A DNA stretch of 38,773 bases from positions 1 through 38,773 of the forward strand of contig CAINDP010000184.1 in NCBI GenBank assembly GCA_903847405.1, given 5' to 3'. The translations under genes and the position numbers were made by a program. How positions within the stretch are numbered: the stretch's first letter is position 1; every line of letters begins with the position of its first letter. Source of the stretch: an uncultured Myxococcales bacterium (GTDB lineage: Bacteria; Myxococcota_A; UBA9042; DTJE01). Positions 9,772 through 34,375 of the stretch are shown piece after piece. The notes under the pieces were generated by a model that did not search any database, was not told where the DNA came from, and saw nothing but the letters and a program-made list of their open reading frames with translations.

Positions 9772-9845
9772 CGGGTGACGGGTTTTCTGGCGGGAGGGTC
9801 CGCCCCATCCGCCGCTTCCCCCCTTGATCGCGCCCACCGCCCACC

Positions 9846-9875
9846 TTGCTTCTTCCCCCCTCGATTCGGGATACT
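9846..9875 (+). promoter_or_regulatory. Putative promoter of the Cys-rich and PstS-like lipoprotein genes
   Basis: TTGCTT (9846-9851), 18 bases, GATACT (9870-9875), 35 bases before the ATG at 9910. Confidence 0.35.
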
Positions 9876-9909
9876 GTCGTCCGTCTCACGCTCGCCCGGG
9901 AAGGTCGGA

Positions 9910-11754
9910 ATGCTACGCGCACCGTCCGTGCTGTCGTCCGTCTGCTTTGCCTCACTGGTGGCCGGCGCCGTGGCCTGCGGCACGGGCGCCGCGAACCCCG
10001 ACGACCTCCGGCCCGACACCCACGACGCATACGACGTCGCGGACGTTACGGACACCGCGGACGCCGACCTGCCGAACCCCGACATCGACGCCCCCATCGA
10101 GCCCCGCGAACACCCGACCTGCTGCACCGCGGCGCTGTGCGCCCAACTGCAGGGGACCTGCGATGCCGAAACCTGCCGGTGCGTTCCCGCGGCCGCCTGC
10201 TGCACGACCGAACTGTGCGCCGCCGCGGGCATGGCCTGCGACGCCGGCACGTGCCGCTGCGCCCGGGTGACGTGCCAGGTGGAAGGCGCGCACTGCGACG
10301 AATCCCTGGTCCCCGGGGAGGACGGCCGCCTGGTCTGCACGGCGACCTCGGCGGGCCTGGTGTGCCTGCGGCGGGTGGAGGGCTGGACGGGCTGCGCGGG
10401 GGGCGTCTGCGGCAACTGGGGCTCGGGGTCGTGCACCTGCGGGTGGTTCGGTTGCACGCCCTGGGAGGACTTCTGCGGACCGGACCAGGACTGCGTCACC
10501 GGACCCTACCAGCCCTTGACCAGCGGGACCTGTGGCGTGGCCGGAAACGTGGGCGAAGGGGAAGTCTGCTTCAGTTCCGACGTGTGCGCCTCGGGCCTGG
10601 CCTGCCAGTCCGTCTGCGTGCGGGTGGAATGCGGGCTGGCGCCCGGCGCCCCGTCCTGTCCCGCGGGGCGGGTCTGCCGGCCGCTGGACGCCTGGGGCCT
10701 GCTGGGAACCTGCCGCGTGCCCTGCGATCCCTACGACCCCGCGGGCCCCTGCGGGCCGGGCCAGTGGTGCCGCGGCCCCTGCGCCTACCTGGAGTCCGCG
10801 CTGTTCTGTTCGGAGGCCGATGCCCCGACCTACGGCCTGCTGGGCGGATGGTGCACCCCCTACCGGGACGGCTCGATCCCCCAGGAAGGGGCGGCCTGCG
10901 ATTCGGCGCCCTGTGCGCCCGGCTTCCTTTGCGCGGGCGGCGTGTGCCTGGAGGCATGCCCCGCCGGCCTTCCGCCCGATGCTGCCGTGCGCGACCAGGC
11001 CGCCTGCGCCCCGGGCCTGGAATGCGCCCCGGTGCAGGCGAACTGGCCGATCGTCACCGCCGGGGGCGCCTGCGCGACGCCCTGCGATCCCTTCGCGGTC
11101 GACCCGAACGCCGCGTGCCCGCCGGACCGCGTATGCACGATGTCCGCCTTCGCGACGCCGTCCCTGGCCCACTGCCTGCCCCAGACCTGGCCGCTGGCCG
11201 GTCCCGGCGAGTACTGCTCGCCCCAGGGCTACGCCTGCCAGGCCGGTCATGCCTGCGTTTCCCTGGGCCCCCGCCGGGCGTACCGGTGCGAACCGGCTTG
11301 CCGGGTGGGCGCCGCCGCCGGGGATCCCGACGCCTGCCCTGCGGGACAGCGGTGCTTCCGGTTCTACGACCCGATGGCGAATGCCTGGGCGCCCTGGGGT
11401 TCCTGCGCGACGCCCTGCGAGCCGTTCGCGACCGACGACGCCTCCGGGTGCCTGCCCACCGCCGCCTGCGAACCCCGGGACCGGGATCCCGCCACGGGAC
11501 GACTGGTCGGGTTGTGCTATGACCGCGACTCGGGAACCGAGGGCCAGCCCTGCCTGTCCGCGGAACCGGGGACCCAGCAGGGATGCGCGCCGGGCCTGAC
11601 CTGCCGGCCCGAAGGCGCCGGGTTCCGGTGTCGGGTGCGGTGCGACGCGGAAGGGGCGCAAACGGGCCAGGGAAGGTGTCCGGACCAACAGACGTGCCGG
11701 CGGGCCTGGCCGCCCGCGGGCGAACCGGTGATGGCGGGCTGCGTGCCGAAATGA
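9910..11754 (+). CDS. Cys-rich lipoprotein with acidic tether
   Basis: A 614-residue lipoprotein of unknown function. The signal peptide ends LVAGAVAC (lipid-bearing Cys at about 22), followed by an Asp-rich stretch of about 40 residues (DVADVTDTADADLPNPD). Two EGF-like Cys modules follow (CCTAALCAQLQGTCDAETC and CCTTELCAAAGMACDAGTC), then a long array of disulfide-type modules with recurring CxxPCDPxxxxxxxC and CAPGxxC patterns to the C-terminus. The dense, evenly spaced cysteines imply an extracytoplasmic, disulfide-bonded surface protein. The ATG at 9910 is chosen because it places the lipobox correctly; the ribosome site (AAGGTCGGA) is modest. The next lipoprotein gene follows after 18 bases, so they form an operon. 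Proteins of this style are frequent in Myxococcota. Confidence 0.85.
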   Translation: MLRAPSVLSSVCFASLVAGAVACGTGAANPDDLRPDTHDAYDVADVTDTADADLPNPDIDAPIEPREHPTCCTAALCAQLQGTCDAETCRCVPAAACCTTELCAAAGMACDAGTCRCARVTCQVEGAHCDESLVPGEDGRLVCTATSAGLVCLRRVEGWTGCAGGVCGNWGSGSCTCGWFGCTPWEDFCGPDQDCVTGPYQPLTSGTCGVAGNVGEGEVCFSSDVCASGLACQSVCVRVECGLAPGAPSCPAGRVCRPLDAWGLLGTCRVPCDPYDPAGPCGPGQWCRGPCAYLESALFCSEADAPTYGLLGGWCTPYRDGSIPQEGAACDSAPCAPGFLCAGGVCLEACPAGLPPDAAVRDQAACAPGLECAPVQANWPIVTAGGACATPCDPFAVDPNAACPPDRVCTMSAFATPSLAHCLPQTWPLAGPGEYCSPQGYACQAGHACVSLGPRRAYRCEPACRVGAAAGDPDACPAGQRCFRFYDPMANAWAPWGSCATPCEPFATDDASGCLPTAACEPRDRDPATGRLVGLCYDRDSGTEGQPCLSAEPGTQQGCAPGLTCRPEGAGFRCRVRCDAEGAQTGQGRCPDQQTCRRAWPPAGEPVMAGCVPK

Positions 11755-24904: not shown

Positions 24905-24937
24905 GCCGACAGGATTCAAGAATCGCGGGAGGAACCG

Positions 24938-27900
24938 ATGGCGGCTCGGATCGGCACGCTTGGCCTGTTCCTGGGTGTTCTGGGCATCTTCGCGCTGGGC
25001 TGCCAGGACGACGGGGCGGGCACGACCCGGCCCAGCAGCATCCACACGGTTCACTTCAACCTGGGGACGGGGACCTTCCTGCCCCAGGGCGAGGACTACC
25101 ACCTGCACGTCGCGGGCGAGCGCCACAAACTGGTGGAGCACGACGCGGCCAGCCGGGCGCTGTTCGCCAACCTGGCGGACGACCCCACCCCGCCGACCCA
25201 CTACGCCGAAGACGTCGAACTGCCCGACGACCGGCTGGTCATGATGTACGTGACGCAGCGGACGAACACCACCGGGGCGCTGGACCGGCTGGGGGACGTG
25301 CCCCACGGTCTGGCGGCCGTGGCGCTGCACATCCCGCAGAAGGCCAGGGAGGCGGCGCAGGCCCTGATCCTGAAGTCCGCGTCCACGACCGGAAAACTCC
25401 GGAGCGCCTTGCTGCCGCTGGATCCGACGCAGATCGACAACTACGACTATACGCAGGTCGCCGAAACGATCCTGTTCCACCATCCGATCGTCGCGAACCT
25501 GGACCCCACGTGGGCGGCGTACATCCTGTACCAGTACATCATGGTGGCGCCGGGGCTGGACGAGCTGACCTACGCCCTGACCGATCTGGGCCCCCACGGG
25601 TGGTACCAGATGAACCCCATCACCAACGACGACGGGACTCCGTGGCTGGCCACCGAGGACCACGACGGCGACGGCCAGCCCGACAACACGCCCCTGTACC
25701 AGTACCAGATCGTGGACCAGGTCCAGGTGGCCGGGGCCGAGGCGATGGCCTCGGTCGTCAACGCCATCCACAACGACCCCCTGCTGAAGGACCTGCACTG
25801 GACCGTGGCCCCGGGCACCGCGACGAACGTGGAGGATCCGTCGGACACGGATTCGACGTCGTCGGGCCTGACGTCGGTCCGCAGCGCGGCGACGGACGGG
25901 TACACCCTGCACCTGTCCAACGAAGGGTACCGGCACATGTTCCGTACGCGGGTCGAGTCCCAGGACGGCACGAACGTCAAACTGGCGTTCTCGAACTCGG
26001 CGATCCGGCACCTGACCAACTTCATCCGTTTCTATGACGAAAACGGCACCCTGCTGGTACTGACCGACGACGAGTGGTCGTCCCTGATCGGGATGTGGCC
26101 CTCCAGCATGGAAAGCGCCGACACGAAGTTCATGGGCATCTCCAACCCGGTCACCACCATCCTGGGCATCCCGATCACCGGCAACGTCTTCGAGACCACG
26201 GCGCAGTTCACGTTCCCGGCCCGGGCCCGCACGGCGAAGATCAGTTCGGGAACCCTGGGCACGGGCGGGGAGCGGGATCCGTTCGTCGAGGCGGTGGGCG
26301 CCGACTTCACCATGGCACTGGAACTGGCGCTGCCCACGGCCTGCCTGGTGATGGCCCTGGGCCCGGACGATTCAAAGGACATGGTGGACCTGGTCCTCAA
26401 CACCCCGCAACTGGCGTCCGCCATCGTGCAGTTCATGTACGGGGTCCTGTGGAGCAAGTCCGACCTGTCGGTTTCGTCGGTCCTGAAGAAGGTCGGCGCC
26501 GTCGGGGGGGACGTCCTGGCCCGCATGCTGCTGAACAAGGCCGCCGCGAAGCTCTTCGCGAAGATCGTGACCAAGAAGGCGGCCGAGGACGCGGTCCCGT
26601 TCTCGGGCTGGGCGGCGATGGCCGCGGACATCCTCTGCACGGGTGCGATGCTGGCCGAAACCGGCTACGCAGTGCTGTCCTCGCCCCACGTCATCCGGAA
26701 CGACCTGACGATGACCCACGACATCACCCTGACGATCGACTGCGACCCGCGGGACTACCAGTTCCCGGCAACCTCGACGACCTACGTGGTGGACGCGATC
26801 CTGTCGGACAGCGACACCCGCACGACCGGCCTGATCACGCTGCCGACGACGACCGTGTCGGACCCCATCGTCGTGACCTTCAACGACGTCCCGGCCGGCG
26901 GCCAGGTCCGGTTCGACGTGCGCTTCTACACCAGCACCGGCTGGATGGTGGCACGGGCGACCGAGGAGTCGCGGGCGCCGGTCGCGAACGTCAACGACGC
27001 CGGCGGCACCCGCATGACCAGGACCCTCACGCTGCTGGAGAACCTGGTTCCCCTGAACGCGGACTCGATCTACACGCACAAGCAGCGCCTGGTGTACCAG
27101 GGCGGCAAGCACGCCTGGCAGGCCGGAGCGGCGCCCACGGCCACGGCGGCCGACCTGACGGCGACCGGGCTGGCAGACCTGGGAAACGTGACACTGCTGC
27201 AGAAGGAAGGCGGCCTGGCCTACACGTGGCAGGGCGCGCCCCAGGGACTCGCGACATGCGCATCGTCCACCACCGCCACGACCCTGTGGACGGTCCAGGG
27301 GATTTCGCTGAAGCAGGATCCCGAAGGTGGCCTGCAGGCGATGGGCTGCGGGACAGCCGAAAAGCCGTATGTCCTGTATGACATGGACGCGACCTCCTGG
27401 GACGCTGCCCAGAACCTGATCGTGCTGCCGTTGAACGGCCGGTGGTACGTGCGGACGCTGACCCAGGGCACCGACAAGACCTTCCAGGTGTCGGCCGGAA
27501 GCCTGGGGTCGTTCCCGATGGCCGTGGACTCGATGGTCCGGCACCCCCAGGGAATCCTGATCGCCATCAACCACGGGTACGCCAAGATGTACAGCCTGGC
27601 GCTGGCCGACAGCCCGGTCGCCGACGCGCTGGCCCCCGAGGCCGTCCCGGTGGCGGGCCCCGCCAAGACGCTGGACGGACTGCAGAACAACCCGTACCTG
27701 TTGCGGGATCCGATCGCCCTGCACGTGGCGTCCGACGGGGCCGTGCTGGTCCTGGACGACGTCCACGAACTGACCCAGGGAACCGTGAACGAACAGGTCA
27801 AGGCACGGTTGAAGGTGTTCACGAAGGAAGGCGATCCCGCCCCGTACTTCGGCGGCGCGGACCACCTGGACCTGGTCGAGCCCACCGCCAACGTGCTGGT

Positions 27901-28189
27901 GCGGTACCTGGACTTCGGCCTGGAGGGCCAGGGGTACATCTACGTGCTGTCGTATGCCTATCCCTCGGACCAGGCGTCCTACCAGCCGAAGGCCTCGGAC
28001 TACCGCCTGGACCTCTTCCAGCCCGGGGGACAGTTCCTGGCGCGGACCTCGGGTTTCGCCGCGGCCCGCCTGAGTGTGGACCTGTTCCGCAACGTGTACT
28101 CCCTGAACTTCGAAACGTTCGCCGGACCCGCCGGGCGGCTGGAGCCCTCGATCAGCGAGTGGATCCCTCCGACCCCGCCCGGGCCATGA
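24938..28189 (+). CDS. Very large lipoprotein of unknown function
   Basis: A 1083-residue lipoprotein with lipobox FALGC (Cys22). I do not recognise the family. Three zones can be seen. Residues about 30-440 are mixed alpha/beta. Residues about 445-590 are unusually hydrophobic and helical for a secreted protein (FTMALELALPTACLVMALG, then GGDVLARMLLNKAAAKLFAK and WAAMAADILCTGAMLAETGY). From about 595 there is a beta-rich region, and the C-terminal third (about 700-1083) alternates short strands with turn sequences such as DGAVLVLDD and LEGQGYIYVLSY, compatible with a beta-propeller. The hydrophobic middle could insert into a membrane or be a buried helical bundle. Start: ATG 24938 with GGGAGGA upstream. 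The pentapeptide-repeat lipoprotein gene follows after 33 bases, so they are probably one operon. Confidence 0.85.
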   Translation: MAARIGTLGLFLGVLGIFALGCQDDGAGTTRPSSIHTVHFNLGTGTFLPQGEDYHLHVAGERHKLVEHDAASRALFANLADDPTPPTHYAEDVELPDDRLVMMYVTQRTNTTGALDRLGDVPHGLAAVALHIPQKAREAAQALILKSASTTGKLRSALLPLDPTQIDNYDYTQVAETILFHHPIVANLDPTWAAYILYQYIMVAPGLDELTYALTDLGPHGWYQMNPITNDDGTPWLATEDHDGDGQPDNTPLYQYQIVDQVQVAGAEAMASVVNAIHNDPLLKDLHWTVAPGTATNVEDPSDTDSTSSGLTSVRSAATDGYTLHLSNEGYRHMFRTRVESQDGTNVKLAFSNSAIRHLTNFIRFYDENGTLLVLTDDEWSSLIGMWPSSMESADTKFMGISNPVTTILGIPITGNVFETTAQFTFPARARTAKISSGTLGTGGERDPFVEAVGADFTMALELALPTACLVMALGPDDSKDMVDLVLNTPQLASAIVQFMYGVLWSKSDLSVSSVLKKVGAVGGDVLARMLLNKAAAKLFAKIVTKKAAEDAVPFSGWAAMAADILCTGAMLAETGYAVLSSPHVIRNDLTMTHDITLTIDCDPRDYQFPATSTTYVVDAILSDSDTRTTGLITLPTTTVSDPIVVTFNDVPAGGQVRFDVRFYTSTGWMVARATEESRAPVANVNDAGGTRMTRTLTLLENLVPLNADSIYTHKQRLVYQGGKHAWQAGAAPTATAADLTATGLADLGNVTLLQKEGGLAYTWQGAPQGLATCASSTTATTLWTVQGISLKQDPEGGLQAMGCGTAEKPYVLYDMDATSWDAAQNLIVLPLNGRWYVRTLTQGTDKTFQVSAGSLGSFPMAVDSMVRHPQGILIAINHGYAKMYSLALADSPVADALAPEAVPVAGPAKTLDGLQNNPYLLRDPIALHVASDGAVLVLDDVHELTQGTVNEQVKARLKVFTKEGDPAPYFGGADHLDLVEPTANVLVRYLDFGLEGQGYIYVLSYAYPSDQASYQPKASDYRLDLFQPGGQFLARTSGFAAARLSVDLFRNVYSLNFETFAGPAGRLEPSISEWIPPTPPGP

Positions 28190-28222
28190 CCGCGTGACGA
28201 TCGACCGACGCCGGAGGTCCAG

Positions 28223-31096
28223 ATGAAGCGATCCTGCGCCCTGGTGGTCGTGCTGTGGACGATGCTCGGCTGCGGCGACGGGGACGGTGCGGAACCGGCG
28301 CCCCCGGCGATCGAGCGCATGGGGTTCGGCGAGGCCGACCTGCTGGACCCGACGGCCCGCCCCGGACTGCAGCATTCCCGGGTCTTCCAACTGGAAGCGA
28401 CGGGGACGCACGCGGGCGACACGGCCGAAGAGGGAGTCGACCGCGGGCCGCTGTTCGTGGACGAGGCTACGCGCCATCTGTTCTGCTTCGAGGATCCTGA
28501 GGGACAGGCGCACCGCATGCGGATCCTGGACGCCTCGGGCGCGATCCTCCTGGACCTGCCGGCCAACGATTGCGCGAACGTGGACCTCCCTGCGGGCCGG
28601 TATGAACAGGAATTCGAGCACGGCCGACGCGGCCAGAACGGGGCGCTGCCCGCGGTGATCCTGACGCGGCCGGTGCTGGGCGGGGACGCAACCCGGGCGG
28701 CGCTGCAGGAAGCGGGGCGGCTGCGATCCGCAGTGACGGCATCCCCGTCGTGCAACGCGACCGACTGCACGGCGACGCAGGTGGCCTATTCGGCGATGAA
28801 CCTGACCGCGGGACAGGTGGCGCTGTTTCCCTCCACGTGCCCGCCCCAGCCCGCGGACCTGGTCTGGGTCTTCAAGGGGAACTGCGCGGACACGGGCATC
28901 GCGCAGGTCCACGGAATGCACGTGGGTCCGTGGACCCAGACGGTGGTGTACGAGGGGACGAACTGGGCCGGCAGCATGCACGGGTTGAGTTCGCGGGTGG
29001 CCAAGGAGGCCTGCTTCCCCTATGACCAGCCTGCCGTGGCGGGTCGGCACGCGTCGTTGCGGGTCATCCCTTACCCCGACCCGGTCCCTTCGAATCCCTG
29101 CGAAGTGGTTTCAGGGGGGTACTACTGCTCGGGATGCCAGACGACGGGCCCGACGACGCTGCCGGCGAATGCGCAGCAGCCCGTGAACACGACCAGCAGC
29201 TTCACGCCCCCCGCGACCGGCCAGGTGCTGGTGGTCGGCAGCGGGCCTGCGGGGACCTGCTGCCAGGGCGCCCTGGTGCTGCAGGGAGGGTGCCCCGACC
29301 TGGGCCTCTATGGGTTCGACGACACGATCACCAGGATCGCCCTGGGGCCATCCACCGAGGTCGACCTCTTCGGCGACGTCGCCTTCGGCGGCACGAAGTC
29401 CAGCTGGAGCGATTCGGGGTCGAATCCCTACACCCTGCTGGATCACGACGGGTTCCACACGGCGAAGAACGAGGCCTCGTCCCTGATCGTCGACACGTGG
29501 ACGGGAATCGTCGCAGCCACGCTGGTGTCCACGCGCCGCTGCACGGGGTGCAACCTTCAGGGGGCGAACCTGGCGGGCCTGGATTCCGGGGGCACGCTCG
29601 TCGAGCTTTCCGGGGCGAACCTGGCGGGAGCCACCCTGACGGGAGCCCAGATCCCGGGGGCGAACCTCGCGTCGGCGTTGCTGCAGGGCGCGAACCTGTC
29701 CATGGCGAACCTGAAGGGCGCCAACCTGGGCAGCGCGAAACTGGGCGAACTGCGGGACGCGACCGGGAAGATCACCATCGCGGCGGCGACGCTGGACGGC
29801 GCCTGGATGGAGGACGTGATCCTCAGCGGGCCCGCGGATCTGACGGCGGTGTCGGCCAAGGGCGTGTACTTCTACGCCGGGGACGCGGCGGCTGCCACGG
29901 TGGCCGGGTCGACGCTGTTGCGGATCGACTTCACCGGCGCCGTCCTGAAGGGGTTGAACCTGCACGGGGCCACGATCGCCGGGGCCAGTTTCTACCAGGC
30001 GGATCTGACCAAGGCGATCCTGACGGCCGCAATCGCGACGGACGCCACGCAGGGCCACGTGGACTTCCGCCAGGCGTCGATGCAGGGCGCGGACATGACC
30101 GGCACGGACTTCGATCGGGCCGACTTCACCGGCGCGCTGCTGAACGCGACGAAGGTTTCGACCCTGGTCCGGACGGTGCAGGGCGTCGGGAAGGACGCGG
30201 CCGGAAACCTGGCCTACGTGCCCCAGTATCAGGCCTTCACGTGCGACGCCCAGATCCCGAACATGCTGCCGCAGTCCACCACCTCCGCGACGACCTGCCC
30301 CGATGGCGCCCCGGGGCCCTGCACCGGGAACGGCGGCGAGTCGGGACCGGCCTGCCCGGGGGACTGCGGCGGGATCGGCAGCCAATGCGCGACCCCACGG
30401 CACTGCGTGGCGGTGGACTGGCCCTCGGGGATCGGCCCGGGGCACTGGGCATGCAGCAAGGGGGTGTGCACGGCGAGTGGCAGCACCTCGACGTGCGGGA
30501 ACGGCACGTGCGACGCGGCAGGCGGCGAAACCCCGGCATCGTGTCCTGCGGATTGCGCGCTGGATTGCCAGTTGCCCAGCCACTGCTGGGCGCTGCCCTG
30601 GGTCGGAACCGCGCCGGGAAACTGGATGTGCGGCAAGACGACGGGACTGTGCGCCGCCAGTGCGCAGAGCCTGTTCTGCGGGGACAAGATCTGCATGGAC
30701 GCCGTGGGTGAAAGCCCCGCGTCCTGCCCGGCCGACTGCGGCACCGCGGCCGCCTGCAGCGGGACCGCGAACCGGTGCGCGAACCTGGCCTGGCCCCATG
30801 CGGACTGCCAGGGTTCCTGGAGCTGTTCCAGCGGAGCCTGCCTGGCGACGTGCGACACCGTCCACTGCGGGGACGGAACCTGCAACTGGACCGCGGGCGA
30901 AAGTCCCCGCTCCTGCCCGCGGGACTGCGTCATGGGGGGCTGCACCGAACGGGCCCACTGCGCGGGCCGGCCCTGGCCGACCGGCGTGTTCCCCGGCCAC
31001 TGGGAATGCGTCAACCGCATTTGCAGCACGATCACCGAGGACAACACCTGCGGCGACACGTTGTGCGATCGGAACGGCCGCTGGGTCCTGCCGTGA
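28223..31096 (+). CDS. Lipoprotein with beta/gamma-crystallin-like segment, pentapeptide repeats and CGxGxC repeats
   Basis: A 957-residue lipoprotein (lipobox TMLGC, Cys17). In the order seen: an N-terminal domain (20-170); a Cys-containing domain (about 170-310); a segment at about 350-430 that resembles beta/gamma-crystallin Greek keys (YGFDDTITRIAL, EVDLFGDVAFGG, KNEASSLIV); pentapeptide repeats (about 440-645) of the A(N/D)LxG type, such as LQGANL, LSGANL and LQGANLSMANLKGANL; and a C-terminal array (about 690-957) of Cys modules of the form CGxGxCxxxxGExxxSCPxDC. Pentapeptide repeats make a right-handed beta helix. The final module is incomplete. Start: ATG 28223 with GGAGG at 28213-28217. 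The role is unknown; it is likely exposed at the cell surface. Confidence 0.85.
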   Translation: MKRSCALVVVLWTMLGCGDGDGAEPAPPAIERMGFGEADLLDPTARPGLQHSRVFQLEATGTHAGDTAEEGVDRGPLFVDEATRHLFCFEDPEGQAHRMRILDASGAILLDLPANDCANVDLPAGRYEQEFEHGRRGQNGALPAVILTRPVLGGDATRAALQEAGRLRSAVTASPSCNATDCTATQVAYSAMNLTAGQVALFPSTCPPQPADLVWVFKGNCADTGIAQVHGMHVGPWTQTVVYEGTNWAGSMHGLSSRVAKEACFPYDQPAVAGRHASLRVIPYPDPVPSNPCEVVSGGYYCSGCQTTGPTTLPANAQQPVNTTSSFTPPATGQVLVVGSGPAGTCCQGALVLQGGCPDLGLYGFDDTITRIALGPSTEVDLFGDVAFGGTKSSWSDSGSNPYTLLDHDGFHTAKNEASSLIVDTWTGIVAATLVSTRRCTGCNLQGANLAGLDSGGTLVELSGANLAGATLTGAQIPGANLASALLQGANLSMANLKGANLGSAKLGELRDATGKITIAAATLDGAWMEDVILSGPADLTAVSAKGVYFYAGDAAAATVAGSTLLRIDFTGAVLKGLNLHGATIAGASFYQADLTKAILTAAIATDATQGHVDFRQASMQGADMTGTDFDRADFTGALLNATKVSTLVRTVQGVGKDAAGNLAYVPQYQAFTCDAQIPNMLPQSTTSATTCPDGAPGPCTGNGGESGPACPGDCGGIGSQCATPRHCVAVDWPSGIGPGHWACSKGVCTASGSTSTCGNGTCDAAGGETPASCPADCALDCQLPSHCWALPWVGTAPGNWMCGKTTGLCAASAQSLFCGDKICMDAVGESPASCPADCGTAAACSGTANRCANLAWPHADCQGSWSCSSGACLATCDTVHCGDGTCNWTAGESPRSCPRDCVMGGCTERAHCAGRPWPTGVFPGHWECVNRICSTITEDNTCGDTLCDRNGRWVLP

Positions 31097-31276: not shown

Positions 31277-34200
31277 ATGACACGGGGCATGCGGTGCGGG
31301 TTCGTGGGGATCGTGCTGGTGGCGGCGTGGGTGGGGAGCGGGTGCGGGGACGGGGGCGGGGATGGGGGCGGGGACGGGTACGGGGACGGGTACGGGTACG
31401 GGTACGACACACGCGGGGCGGACCGTCTGGAGGGCGTGGTGTTCGACCTGGGATGGAAGGACGGGGTCGGCGACGGTACGGTCGCGGCCGATGTCCGCCC
31501 GGATTCGGCGGCCGACGTGCTTCCGGACGGGCACCTCGACGTCCGCCTGGACGGCGCCGCCGGCGACCCCGGGTGGCCCGATCAATGGGACTGCCCGGGA
31601 GCCTTCGGGTGCCCCTGCGACCGCAACGAGGAGTGCGTCAGCGGGTTCTGCGTGGAGGCCCAGGATCGGTACCGGTGCAGCCGGATCTGCCAGTCCGAGG
31701 ACGCGTGCCCCCAGGGATGGAGGTGCGGCCTGGTCGGCGGGACCGGCGGCGTGGACCTGCTGTACGTGTGCGTCGACCCGTTCGCGCGGCTGTGCCAGCC
31801 GTGCCTGCAGGATCAGGAATGCGCGCCGACCGTGGGCGCGGGCAACCGGCGGCACGCGTGCATCCCGCTGGGCGCCGAAGGCAGTTTCTGCGGCGTCGAA
31901 TGCACCGCGGACAAGGAGTGCCCGGACGGCTTCAAGTGCGCGGAGGCGCCGGGGGTCGTGCCGGCCGCGCGCCAGTGCCTGCCCCGGGGCGCGACGTGCG
32001 AGTGCACGCCGAAGTTCCGCATCCAGGGGAACCGGACACGGTGCTCGGTGACCAGCGCGGCGGGGACGTGCCGGGCGGAACGCACCTGCGACCAGGCCTG
32101 CCCGGCGGCGAAGCCCGAAACCGAAACCTGCAATGGCATCGACGACGACTGCGATGGAACCGCCGATGAAGGCACCAACGGGCAGTCCTGCAAGCTGGCC
32201 AACGTCTACGGGACCTGCACGGGGACGGCGCGCTGCGTCGGGGGCCACGAGTTCTGCGAGGGCACGTCCGCCGGCCAGGAGCTGTGCAACGGCATCGACG
32301 ACGACTGCGACGGCCAGACGGACGAGCGGGACGCCATCGGCTGCACGGTCCGGTACCGGGACGCCGACGGGGACGGTTACGGCGCGACCGGCAGCGGGCA
32401 ATGCACCTGCCGCGCAGCGCCTCCCTATGTCGCGACGCAGGAAGGGGACTGCGACGACGCGAAGGCCGCGGTGCACCCGGGGGCTTTCGAAACCTGCAAC
32501 GGCAGCGACGACGACTGCGACGGCCGGGCCGACGAGGACACGCTGGGCCAGTGCTTCCCGACCGTCTGCGACACGGCGCGCGGGGCGTGCAAGGCGGCCT
32601 GCGACGGCCCCCAGGACTGCCAGTCCGGGACCGAGTGCGTGAACTTTGCCTGCCGCACGATCCCCGGCGTCCCCTGCCAGCGGGACGACCAGTGCGGCGG
32701 GGGCTTCTGCACCGACGGCGTGTGCTGCCGGACGCGCTGCAACGGGGTGTGCGAGTCCTGCGCCCTGCCCGGCCGCGTCGGCCAGTGCGACCCCATCCCG
32801 CCGCTGCAGGATCCCCAGGACGAGTGCGCGGCACAGGCTGCCGGCACCTGCGGGTCCACTGGGTTCTGTTCGGGCAACCGGTCGTGCACGCTGCACGCGG
32901 CCGGAACGCCGTGCGCCCCCCCGACCTGCATCGACGGCGCCACGCTGGCCCGCGCCGACCTGTGCGACGGGGCCGGGTCGTGCCGGGACGGCGGCACCAC
33001 CACCTGCGCGCCGGCATCGTGCGACGTCGGCGCGGGAGCCTGCCGGCAATCGTGCGTGCTGGACCCGGACTGCCAGGCCGGATACCTGTGCGTGGCAGGC
33101 CGGTGCGCCCGGGACATGGGCCAGGCCTGCGTGGTGGACGGCGAGTGCGCCAGCGGGTTCTGCGCCGACGGCGTCTGCTGCCGGGGGCGGTGCGGCGGCA
33201 CGTGCGAGGCCTGCAACAACGCGGGGCGGGCGGGCTGGTGCGACCCGGTGCCGGACGGCCTGGACCCGGCCGACGAATGCCCCCAGGAATCCGCGGCGGG
33301 ATGCCGCTTCACGGGCACCTGCGGGGGCGCCCGGACCTGCCGACTGCACGCCGCGGGCACGGTGTGCATCGGGGCGTCCTGCGCGTCCGCGTCCACGTCC
33401 AACGCGCCCGACACGTGCAACGGCGCGGGGCTTTGCTTGGACAACGGGACCCGGACCTGCGCGCCCTATGCGTGCAACGTCGCCACGGGGCAGTGCGGCG
33501 CCTGGTGCGCCACGGCGTCCGACTGCGCGTCGGGGTACGTGTGCCAGGCGTCCACGGGCCAGTGCCTGAAGTCCGAGGGGCAGGCCTGCACCGGCAACCT
33601 GGAATGCCAGGGCGGCACCTGCTGCAGCGGGGTCTGCCGGGACCTGCAGACAGACCGGAACCATTGCGGGACCTGCGGGACCGTGTGCCGCAACGAGCAC
33701 GGCGGGACGTCCTGCGTGGCGGGCGTTTGCCGGCCCACCTGCGACACGGCCTGGGGCGACTGCGACGGCAGCCGCAGCAGCGGGTGCGAAACGTCCCTGC
33801 GGACCACCACCGACTGCGGCAAGTGCAAGGCGGCCTGCGTCCGGACCGACGGGACCGCGACGTGCGAAACGGGCGCCTGCGCGCTGGACCGGTGCGACGC
33901 GGGATTCGCCAACTGCGACGCCACCGAGGCGAACGGCTGCGAACTGGACCTTTCCCGCACGCCGAACACCTGCGCCACCGCCGAGTGGGTCGGGTCGAAC
34001 TGCGGGGACACCGGCAGCGGCGCGTTGTGCCCGACGGCGTCGTGGCGGTCGTTCGCGGTGCGGTCGGGTCGGGCCGGCCACTGGTTCCGGGCCCGGGTGC
34101 AGGAGTGCTCGGACTGCTGCGCGGACGTCGCCACGCGGATCACGCTGACCGTCCCGGCCGGCGTGGACTATGACCTGTTCGTGTACAGCGCCTGCGGCAG

Positions 34201-34375
34201 CCTGACGGCATCGTCCACCCGGGGCGCGGGCGCCACGGAGCAGGTCACGGTGCGGCGCGGGGACGACTGCCTCAGCGGCGACAGCGGCTTCGACTACGAG
34301 GTGGAGGTACGCTACGGCAGCGGGTCGTCGTGCGAGCCGTGGATCCTGGGCTTCGACGGCACCACGGCGTCCTAG
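31277..34375 (+). CDS. Cys-rich lipoprotein with MopE-type metal-binding repeats and PPC-like C-terminus
   Basis: A 1032-residue lipoprotein: lipobox VGSGC (Cys23), then a Gly/Asp/Tyr tract (GDGGGDGGGDGYGDGYGYGY) and an Asp-rich tether to about residue 100. A Cys-rich part follows, with three MopE-type motifs, CNGIDDDCDGTADE, CNGIDDDCDGQTDE and CNGSDDDCDGRADE (about residues 285, 335 and 407), which in MopE-like proteins are associated with metal binding. Two tandem copies of a Cys module of about 130 residues lie at about 464-590 and 614-744, both with GFCxDGVCC and CxLHAAGTxC. The C-terminal 110 residues (WFRARVQ, ITLTVPAGVDYDLFVYSAC) resemble a pre-peptidase C-terminal domain. Start: ATG 31277 after GGAGGGAGGGGA. 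The stop shares CTAG with the convergent CoA-transferase gene. Confidence 0.88.
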   Translation: MTRGMRCGFVGIVLVAAWVGSGCGDGGGDGGGDGYGDGYGYGYDTRGADRLEGVVFDLGWKDGVGDGTVAADVRPDSAADVLPDGHLDVRLDGAAGDPGWPDQWDCPGAFGCPCDRNEECVSGFCVEAQDRYRCSRICQSEDACPQGWRCGLVGGTGGVDLLYVCVDPFARLCQPCLQDQECAPTVGAGNRRHACIPLGAEGSFCGVECTADKECPDGFKCAEAPGVVPAARQCLPRGATCECTPKFRIQGNRTRCSVTSAAGTCRAERTCDQACPAAKPETETCNGIDDDCDGTADEGTNGQSCKLANVYGTCTGTARCVGGHEFCEGTSAGQELCNGIDDDCDGQTDERDAIGCTVRYRDADGDGYGATGSGQCTCRAAPPYVATQEGDCDDAKAAVHPGAFETCNGSDDDCDGRADEDTLGQCFPTVCDTARGACKAACDGPQDCQSGTECVNFACRTIPGVPCQRDDQCGGGFCTDGVCCRTRCNGVCESCALPGRVGQCDPIPPLQDPQDECAAQAAGTCGSTGFCSGNRSCTLHAAGTPCAPPTCIDGATLARADLCDGAGSCRDGGTTTCAPASCDVGAGACRQSCVLDPDCQAGYLCVAGRCARDMGQACVVDGECASGFCADGVCCRGRCGGTCEACNNAGRAGWCDPVPDGLDPADECPQESAAGCRFTGTCGGARTCRLHAAGTVCIGASCASASTSNAPDTCNGAGLCLDNGTRTCAPYACNVATGQCGAWCATASDCASGYVCQASTGQCLKSEGQACTGNLECQGGTCCSGVCRDLQTDRNHCGTCGTVCRNEHGGTSCVAGVCRPTCDTAWGDCDGSRSSGCETSLRTTTDCGKCKAACVRTDGTATCETGACALDRCDAGFANCDATEANGCELDLSRTPNTCATAEWVGSNCGDTGSGALCPTASWRSFAVRSGRAGHWFRARVQECSDCCADVATRITLTVPAGVDYDLFVYSACGSLTASSTRGAGATEQVTVRRGDDCLSGDSGFDYEVEVRYGSGSSCEPWILGFDGTTAS
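31346..31405 (+). repeat. G-rich hexamer tract within the lipoprotein tether
   Basis: Sixty bases of near-tandem GGGGAC, GGGGGC, GGGGAT and GGGTAC hexamers with ten runs of three or more G, right after the lipobox codon. It encodes alternating Gly, Asp and Tyr. It meets the sequence rule for G-quadruplex formation on the coding strand, and its 6-base units allow length change without a frameshift. Confidence 0.85.

What the first reader, a model, noticed from the sequence alone, without database searches (positions are those of the whole stretch)
24938..31096. Two-gene operon of giant unassigned lipoproteins
The 1083-aa protein has a hydrophobic helical centre (about residues 445-590) unusual for a secreted protein, flanked by beta-rich regions and a possible propeller. 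The 957-aa partner combines crystallin-like, pentapeptide and Cys-module parts. Co-transcription (33-base gap) suggests one surface machine, perhaps adhesive, pore-forming or predatory.
Basis: inference. Interest (0 to 1): 0.6.

Follow-up and report, generated by a model that had tools for sequence, protein, structure and literature searches.

The report
Portable pair of giant surface lipoproteins
Two large neighbouring genes, found together every time the first one turns up in its phylum and again on a plasmid of an insect-associated bacterium, encode an undescribed two-part exported complex whose first protein carries conserved membrane-like helices; what it does is unknown, but an attack or attachment role at other cells' membranes is the leading guess.

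Summary
In detail: 24938-28189 (1083 aa) and 28223-31096 (957 aa) are real lipoprotein genes 33 bases apart. P1 has a hydrophobic helical centre between beta-rich regions and a C-terminal NHL propeller. P2 has an N-terminal beta domain, a betagamma-crystallin domain, a pentapeptide solenoid and a Cys-module tail peculiar to this window. The pair survives its own refutation test. Of 379 Myxococcota genomes searched, the same five hold P1 and P2, adjacent and in the same order, and one of the five is in another class. A full-length but leaderless P1 homologue lies with a homologous pentapeptide protein in one gene cluster of a Xenorhabdus bovienii megaplasmid. P1's nearest relative is in another class, which suggests horizontal transfer. 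Helix A of the centre is as uniformly hydrophobic as P1's own signal peptide in all six homologues. That favours a membrane-interacting centre but does not prove it, because both structure models were low-confidence. Best explanation: a portable two-component surface complex in which P1 engages membranes and P2 is a beta-solenoid adhesin or scaffold. 'Adhesive, pore-forming or predatory' remains inference. I found no published description in the library searched. P1 outside its propeller matched no Pfam family or solved structure.

The parts
24938..28189 (+). P1, 1083-aa lipoprotein: leader, beta/alpha N-terminal half, beta region, hydrophobic helical centre, beta region, NHL propeller
   Evidence: five Myxococcota members and one Xenorhabdus homologue
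24927..24932 (+). ribosome-binding site of P1 (GGGAGG)
   Evidence: sequence
24938..25003 (+). P1 lipoprotein signal peptide, residues 1-22 (ends ..FALGC)
   Evidence: leaders also on G004, G009, G010 and G059 copies, absent in Xenorhabdus
25868..26257 (+). P1 residues 311-440, beta region with invariant N353 and R357 (motif N-x3-R-H/Q)
   Evidence: alignments A1 and A7; strands in low-confidence model
26270..26707 (+). P1 hydrophobic helical centre, residues 445-590
   Evidence: composition, hydropathy, family helix analysis, model helices
26291..26359 (+). helix A, residues 452-474, TM-like in all six homologues; conserved mid-helix acidic/Gln residue and Pro
   Evidence: family mean hydrophobicity 0.61, moment 0.09, same as the signal peptide
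26399..26461 (+). helix B, residues 488-508, hydrophobic on all faces on family average
26594..26671 (+). helix D, residues 553-578, conserved (I/V)P(F/V)xG(W/Q) start
27413..28177 (+). P1 C-terminal NHL-type beta-propeller, about residues 826-1080
   Evidence: profile A1 vs PDB NHL domains 2.4e-14; Foldseek TRIM2 NHL 1.2e-5
28213..28217 (+). ribosome-binding site of P2 (GGAGG) in the 33-nt intergenic gap 28190-28222
   Evidence: sequence
28223..31096 (+). P2, 957-aa lipoprotein
28385..28672 (+). P2 N-terminal beta domain (about residues 55-150), also found fused to RebB elsewhere in the genome
   Evidence: conserved in all five P2; model pLDDT about 55-79 at 71-130; paralogous domain E 4.3e-10
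28814..29092 (+). possible first crystallin-like domain, residues 198-290
   Evidence: inference from strand pattern and GPxT-x-(V/I)(V/I)Y-type sequence; no significant hit
29207..29503 (+). betagamma-crystallin domain, residues about 329-427
   Evidence: profile A6 vs spherulin 3a, 7.8e-6
29534..30157 (+). pentapeptide-repeat solenoid, residues about 438-645
   Evidence: PF00805 1.9e-27
30290..31093 (+). window-specific Cys-module tail, residues 690-957 (three CGxxxC...SCPxDC modules and a truncated fourth)
   Evidence: absent in G004, G009, G010, G059 and Xenorhabdus P2

Best explanation
P1 and P2 are the two subunits of one exported complex encoded by a portable two-gene unit. Shown by sequence: the pair is adjacent, same-strand and co-inherited; both proteins carry lipoprotein leaders in Myxococcota and none in Xenorhabdus; P1 ends in an NHL propeller; P2 holds a pentapeptide solenoid and a betagamma-crystallin domain. 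Inferred: in Myxococcota both subunits are anchored in the outer membrane and act at the surface. P2 serves as an elongated adhesin or scaffold. P1 holds a helical centre packed between beta domains that can enter or bind a membrane (hydrophobic helices A, B and D), as colicin- or toxin-type hairpins do. The complex would therefore act on or attach to the envelope of a neighbouring cell.
For: Co-occurrence: P1 and P2 were each found in the same 5 of 379 Myxococcota genomes, and the pair is adjacent in each. P1 has a 1000-aa homologue in Xenorhabdus (6e-46; 8e-107 from the G004 copy), in one gene cluster with a pentapeptide protein whose non-repeat C-terminal cap matches P2 of G004 and G010 (z 16-17). 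The unit is portable: the flanking genes differ in the loci read, it is absent from both same-genus genomes, and window P1 groups with a genome of another class (42% identity against 28-35% within its own family). Membrane-like helices are conserved: helix A has H 0.61 and moment 0.09 against 0.62 and 0.09 for the signal peptide, while control helices range from -0.29 to 0.31. P2's N-terminal domain recurs in a lipoprotein fused to RebB, the Pfam 'Killing trait' R-body family.
Against: No structure supports membrane insertion: the models have mean pLDDT 42 and 39. Uniformly hydrophobic helices also occur in buried globular cores. The mid-helix Pro and acidic residue in helix A are unusual for a plain TM helix. 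No secretion system, toxin or immunity gene was recognised beside the unit in the Myxococcota loci read. No match to any defence family.
Confidence: 0.4

Rival explanations
1. Structural surface or coat proteins. P1 and P2 are stable, beta-rich coat or matrix lipoproteins (spore, aggregate or biofilm), and the helical centre is an ordinary globular core.
For: The best match of P2's crystallin domain is spherulin 3a, with weaker matches to Myxococcus Protein S and bacterial crystallins. Spherulin 3a is an encystment protein and Protein S a spore-coat protein (background knowledge). Pentapeptide solenoids and propellers are rigid scaffolds.
Against: The homologous pair sits on a megaplasmid of Xenorhabdus, which does not sporulate (background knowledge), and has no leaders there. 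The pattern is patchy and looks horizontally spread. The hydrophobic character of the helices is kept in all six homologues, though a globular core could also keep it.
Confidence: 0.28
2. Envelope ligand capture or homeostasis. P1 is a BtuG-like propeller lipoprotein that captures a solute, and P2 is a YjbI-like secreted pentapeptide protein that shapes the outer membrane.
For: Foldseek finds BtuG2 and BT1954 surface lipoprotein propellers among the top matches (model of low confidence). A secreted pentapeptide protein, YjbI, acts at the outer-membrane surface of Caulobacter (PMC12864828).
Against: No transporter or TonB-dependent receptor was recognised beside the copies read. The sequence profile matches NHL domains of TRIM type, and nothing specific to BtuG was tested. 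P2 carries extra crystallin and beta domains.
Confidence: 0.15
3. Enzymatic or biosynthetic accessory. The propeller is catalytic, and the unit serves a natural-product pathway, as its position beside a polyketide synthase in Xenorhabdus might suggest.
For: A type I PKS lies beside the unit on the Xenorhabdus plasmid. There are weak matches to strictosidine-synthase and lactonase propellers and to ScyF NHL (2.5e-5, below cut-off).
Against: No polyketide or peptide synthase genes were recognised beside the pair in the Myxococcota loci read, where flanks by eye include helicase, hydrogenase-like, biotin-synthesis and efflux genes. Lipoprotein export of both genes is unusual for a pathway enzyme.
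Confidence: 0.08

Closest known systems
Xenorhabdus bovienii CS03 megaplasmid hypothetical protein WP_046338262.1 with pentapeptide protein WP_038201898.1 (no published description found)
   Same: P1 is homologous from its N-terminal domain through the helical centre and propeller to the final SxW(I/M)PxTP motif; the pentapeptide protein shares the solenoid and, with G004 and G010, the C-terminal cap; same gene order.
   Different: No signal peptides; two Gly-rich genes lie between; different P2 head (a beta-trefoil-like N-terminus, by eye); extra modules in both proteins; a PKS neighbour; about 26% identity to the window.
NHL-repeat beta-propellers (TRIM71/Thin NHL; BtuG-type surface lipoproteins as structural neighbours)
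   Same: C-terminal about 250 residues of P1 match by profile.
   Different: Only this domain; the rest of P1, about 800 residues, has no match in Pfam, NCBIfam or the PDB.
Pentapeptide-repeat proteins, including secreted YjbI
   Same: P2 residues 438-645 form a standard pentapeptide solenoid; P2 has an export leader.
   Different: Extra N-terminal beta and crystallin domains, lipid anchor, constant genomic partner P1.
Spherulin 3a / betagamma-crystallins
   Same: One domain of P2 matches spherulin 3a over about 90 residues.
   Different: Embedded in a 957-aa multidomain lipoprotein; calcium-binding motif not tested.
Colicin-type or other alpha-helical membrane-inserting toxins
   Same: Analogy only: hydrophobic helical segments inside a soluble protein, helix A as hydrophobic as a signal peptide on all faces.
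   Different: No detectable sequence similarity; no functional evidence.

Membership tests
NHL beta-propeller (P1 C-terminus) | NHL repeats detectable by profile | tested here: met
   Profile A1 vs Thin/TRIM71 NHL, 2.4e-14, 3 stretches; single-sequence Pfam is below cut-off
Pentapeptide-repeat protein (P2) | PF00805 above gathering score | tested here: met
   94.9 bits against 20.2
betagamma-crystallin (P2 domain) | Sequence match to the crystallin fold family | tested here: met
   spherulin 3a 7.8e-6, one domain only
betagamma-crystallin (P2 domain) | N/D-N/D-x-x-S/T-S calcium motifs | not tested
   not examined systematically
Outer-membrane lipoprotein | Signal peptide II leader with Cys | tested here: met
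   Hydrophobic leaders ending in Cys in all Myxococcota P1 and P2 with an intact start; judged by eye and hydropathy, no signal-peptide predictor was available; localisation itself not testable here
Pore-forming / membrane-inserting protein | Membrane-inserting segments | tested here: inconclusive
   TM-like helix A in all six homologues, B and D less so; model confidence too low
Known anti-phage defence systems | PADLOC model match | tested here: not met
   0 families at E 0.01 for P1, P2 and the Xenorhabdus homologues
Known gyrase-protecting Qnr/MfpA pentapeptide proteins | Score above the NCBIfam cut-off | tested here: not met
   Qnr 27 bits against 240; MfpA 27 against 360; P2 has an export leader

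The most novel reading that the evidence does not exclude
A horizontally spread, undescribed two-component machine: a membrane-inserting helical protein with a propeller, paired with a pentapeptide-solenoid adhesin. It is displayed as lipoproteins by free-living Myxococcota and released without leaders by an insect-associated bacterium, and is used against neighbouring cells.
Probability: 0.2. Interest if true: 0.8.

Novelty: new variant of a known kind. Interest (0 to 1): 0.5.

Why it matters
The pair defines a family that no domain library used here recognises: P1's first 800 residues match nothing in Pfam, NCBIfam or the PDB. It links Myxococcota with an entomopathogen symbiont through a shared two-gene unit. 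If the helical centre inserts into membranes, this would be a new type of two-subunit contact effector. If not, it is still a co-inherited surface complex that can now be tested by knock-out in a culturable Xenorhabdus strain.

Tried and rejected
Single-sequence searches of P1 against Pfam, NCBIfam and the PDB and a first genome-collection scan found nothing. Whole-protein AlphaFold with 4-5 sequences gave low-confidence models, so the Foldseek lists were used only for propeller and solenoid. Phages and viral contigs hold no P1 relative. The profile hits of the centre to myoglobin (E 0.1-2) were rejected as chance. A longer operon including the downstream MopE-type lipoprotein (31277-34375) was rejected because that gene does not follow the pair elsewhere. 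A known phage-defence role was rejected. Promoter and RNA-family scans were empty, and the one terminator-like site found was on the minus strand and below chance expectation. Paper searches found no description of the pair.

Full report
Observation. The window is one contig (C184) of a 5.65-Mb, 273-contig genome. Two ORFs lie exactly where stated: P1, 24938-28189, 1083 aa, and P2, 28223-31096, 957 aa, separated by 33 nt. Each has a GGAGG-type ribosome site, third-position GC of 0.93 and 0.90, and a hydrophobic leader ending in Cys. No terminator-like site lies between them, so co-transcription is plausible but not shown.

Domain anatomy of P1. No Pfam, NCBIfam or PDB match is found with the single sequence. 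A profile of the family identifies the C-terminus as an NHL propeller (Thin/TRIM71 NHL domains, 2.4e-14), and Foldseek on the weak model agrees (TRIM2 NHL, 1.2e-5). A profile of residues 33-690 matches nothing in the PDB up to E 10. Residues 445-590 are the most hydrophobic stretch (54% AVILMFWC against 38% elsewhere).

The helical centre. Family averages over six homologues give helix A (452-474) hydrophobicity 0.61 and moment 0.09, the same as the signal peptide (0.62, 0.09). Helix B gives 0.43 and helix D 0.44, both with low moments, and the segment between them is charged. Helices elsewhere in P1 give -0.29 to 0.31. Helix A therefore looks like a membrane-insertion candidate, conserved at 26-42% overall identity. 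This does not separate insertion from a deeply buried core. The AlphaFold model, built from five sequences, has mean pLDDT 42 and about 30 in this region.

Domain anatomy of P2. Its parts are an N-terminal beta domain (best-modelled part), a region with at least one betagamma-crystallin domain (spherulin 3a, 7.8e-6), pentapeptide repeats (1.9e-27), and a Cys-module tail. Its fourth module is cut short by the stop codon.

Conservation of the pair. P1 was found in G000, G004, G009 and G010 of the same family and in G059 of another class. That is 5 of 379 Myxococcota genomes. P2 without its repeats was found in the same five and in none of the other 374. In G004, G009 and G059 the P2 gene follows P1 directly on the same strand. 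In G010 the contigs break inside each gene, but P1's end and P2's start lie on one contig. These searches used a prefilter and scored only the best few candidates per genome, so absences are at that sensitivity. The phylum is named from the public records of three of the genomes, titled Myxococcota or Deltaproteobacteria.

A distant pair in Xenorhabdus. tblastn against plasmids gave one record, the Xenorhabdus bovienii CS03 megaplasmid (4e-33). Its 1482-aa protein aligns to window P1 over about 1000 residues (24%, 6e-46) and to the G004 copy at 8e-107. It has no leader. Two Gly-rich genes follow, then a pentapeptide-repeat protein. Because repeats align easily, I tested the non-repeat C-terminal cap of that protein: it matches the caps of the G004 and G010 P2 at z 16-17 against shuffles, and without gaps over 73 residues for G004. 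The window's own P2 cap is too divergent to show this (z 3.5). The locus lies beside a type I PKS and has transposase genes on both sides.

Mobility. The flanking genes differ in the loci read and both same-genus genomes lack the pair. In a six-taxon tree, window P1 groups with G059 of another class (42% identity) rather than with its own family (28-35%), with full local support. Horizontal transfer is the simplest reading; old paralogy with losses is not excluded. The P2 tree is weakly resolved.

Interpretation. The genetic evidence for one two-part unit is strong. The cellular evidence is limited to leaders. I prefer a surface complex that engages other cells' membranes, for three reasons: the conserved TM-like helices; the presence of the unit both in Myxococcota metagenome genomes and in an insect-associated enterobacterium; and the reuse of P2's N-terminal domain in a lipoprotein fused to RebB, an R-body family named 'Killing trait' in Pfam. 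All three are circumstantial. The main rival is a structural coat role, given the resemblance to spherulin 3a and Protein S. A secreted pentapeptide protein acting at the outer membrane has a precedent in YjbI (PMC12864828).

Novelty. No matching description was found in the held literature or in curated families. The individual P2 domains and the P1 propeller are known kinds. The P1 N-terminal and central 800 residues and the pairing are, as far as these tools show, undescribed.

Noticed in passing
L078:6369-7169 (G000:C210:23368-24168): A 266-aa lipoprotein of the same genome joins a P2-like N-terminal beta domain to a RebB R-body domain (PF11747, 4.5e-28). It is the only RebB match in the 13 genomes of the family.
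   Followed up: partly
31065-31096: The fourth Cys module of P2 is truncated by the stop (CGDTLCDRNGRWVLP). Another frame still spells SCRD, so a frameshift or assembly error near the end of the gene is possible.
   Followed up: partly
25658-25684: P1 residues 241-249 spell an EF-hand-like DHDGDGQPD loop, present only in the window's copy.
   Followed up: no
31277-34375: Downstream Cys-rich lipoprotein with MopE-type putative metal-binding motifs (PF11617, 1.7e-16); by eye, similar Cys-rich lipoproteins lie near other copies but not as a conserved neighbour.
   Followed up: partly
L079:8268-10196: Between the Xenorhabdus P1 and P2 homologues lie two Gly-rich (GGNGGNGG) genes with no leader, the second with a weak collagen-repeat match.
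   Followed up: no
L079 P1 homologue residues about 1065-1092 and 1262-1312; P2 homologue residues about 486-513 and 664-715: Possible shared accessory module in both Xenorhabdus proteins (E 0.05 and 0.12 only).
   Followed up: partly
9775-11754: 659-aa ORF of the window with no Pfam match, directly after a calcineurin-like phosphoesterase gene.
   Followed up: no
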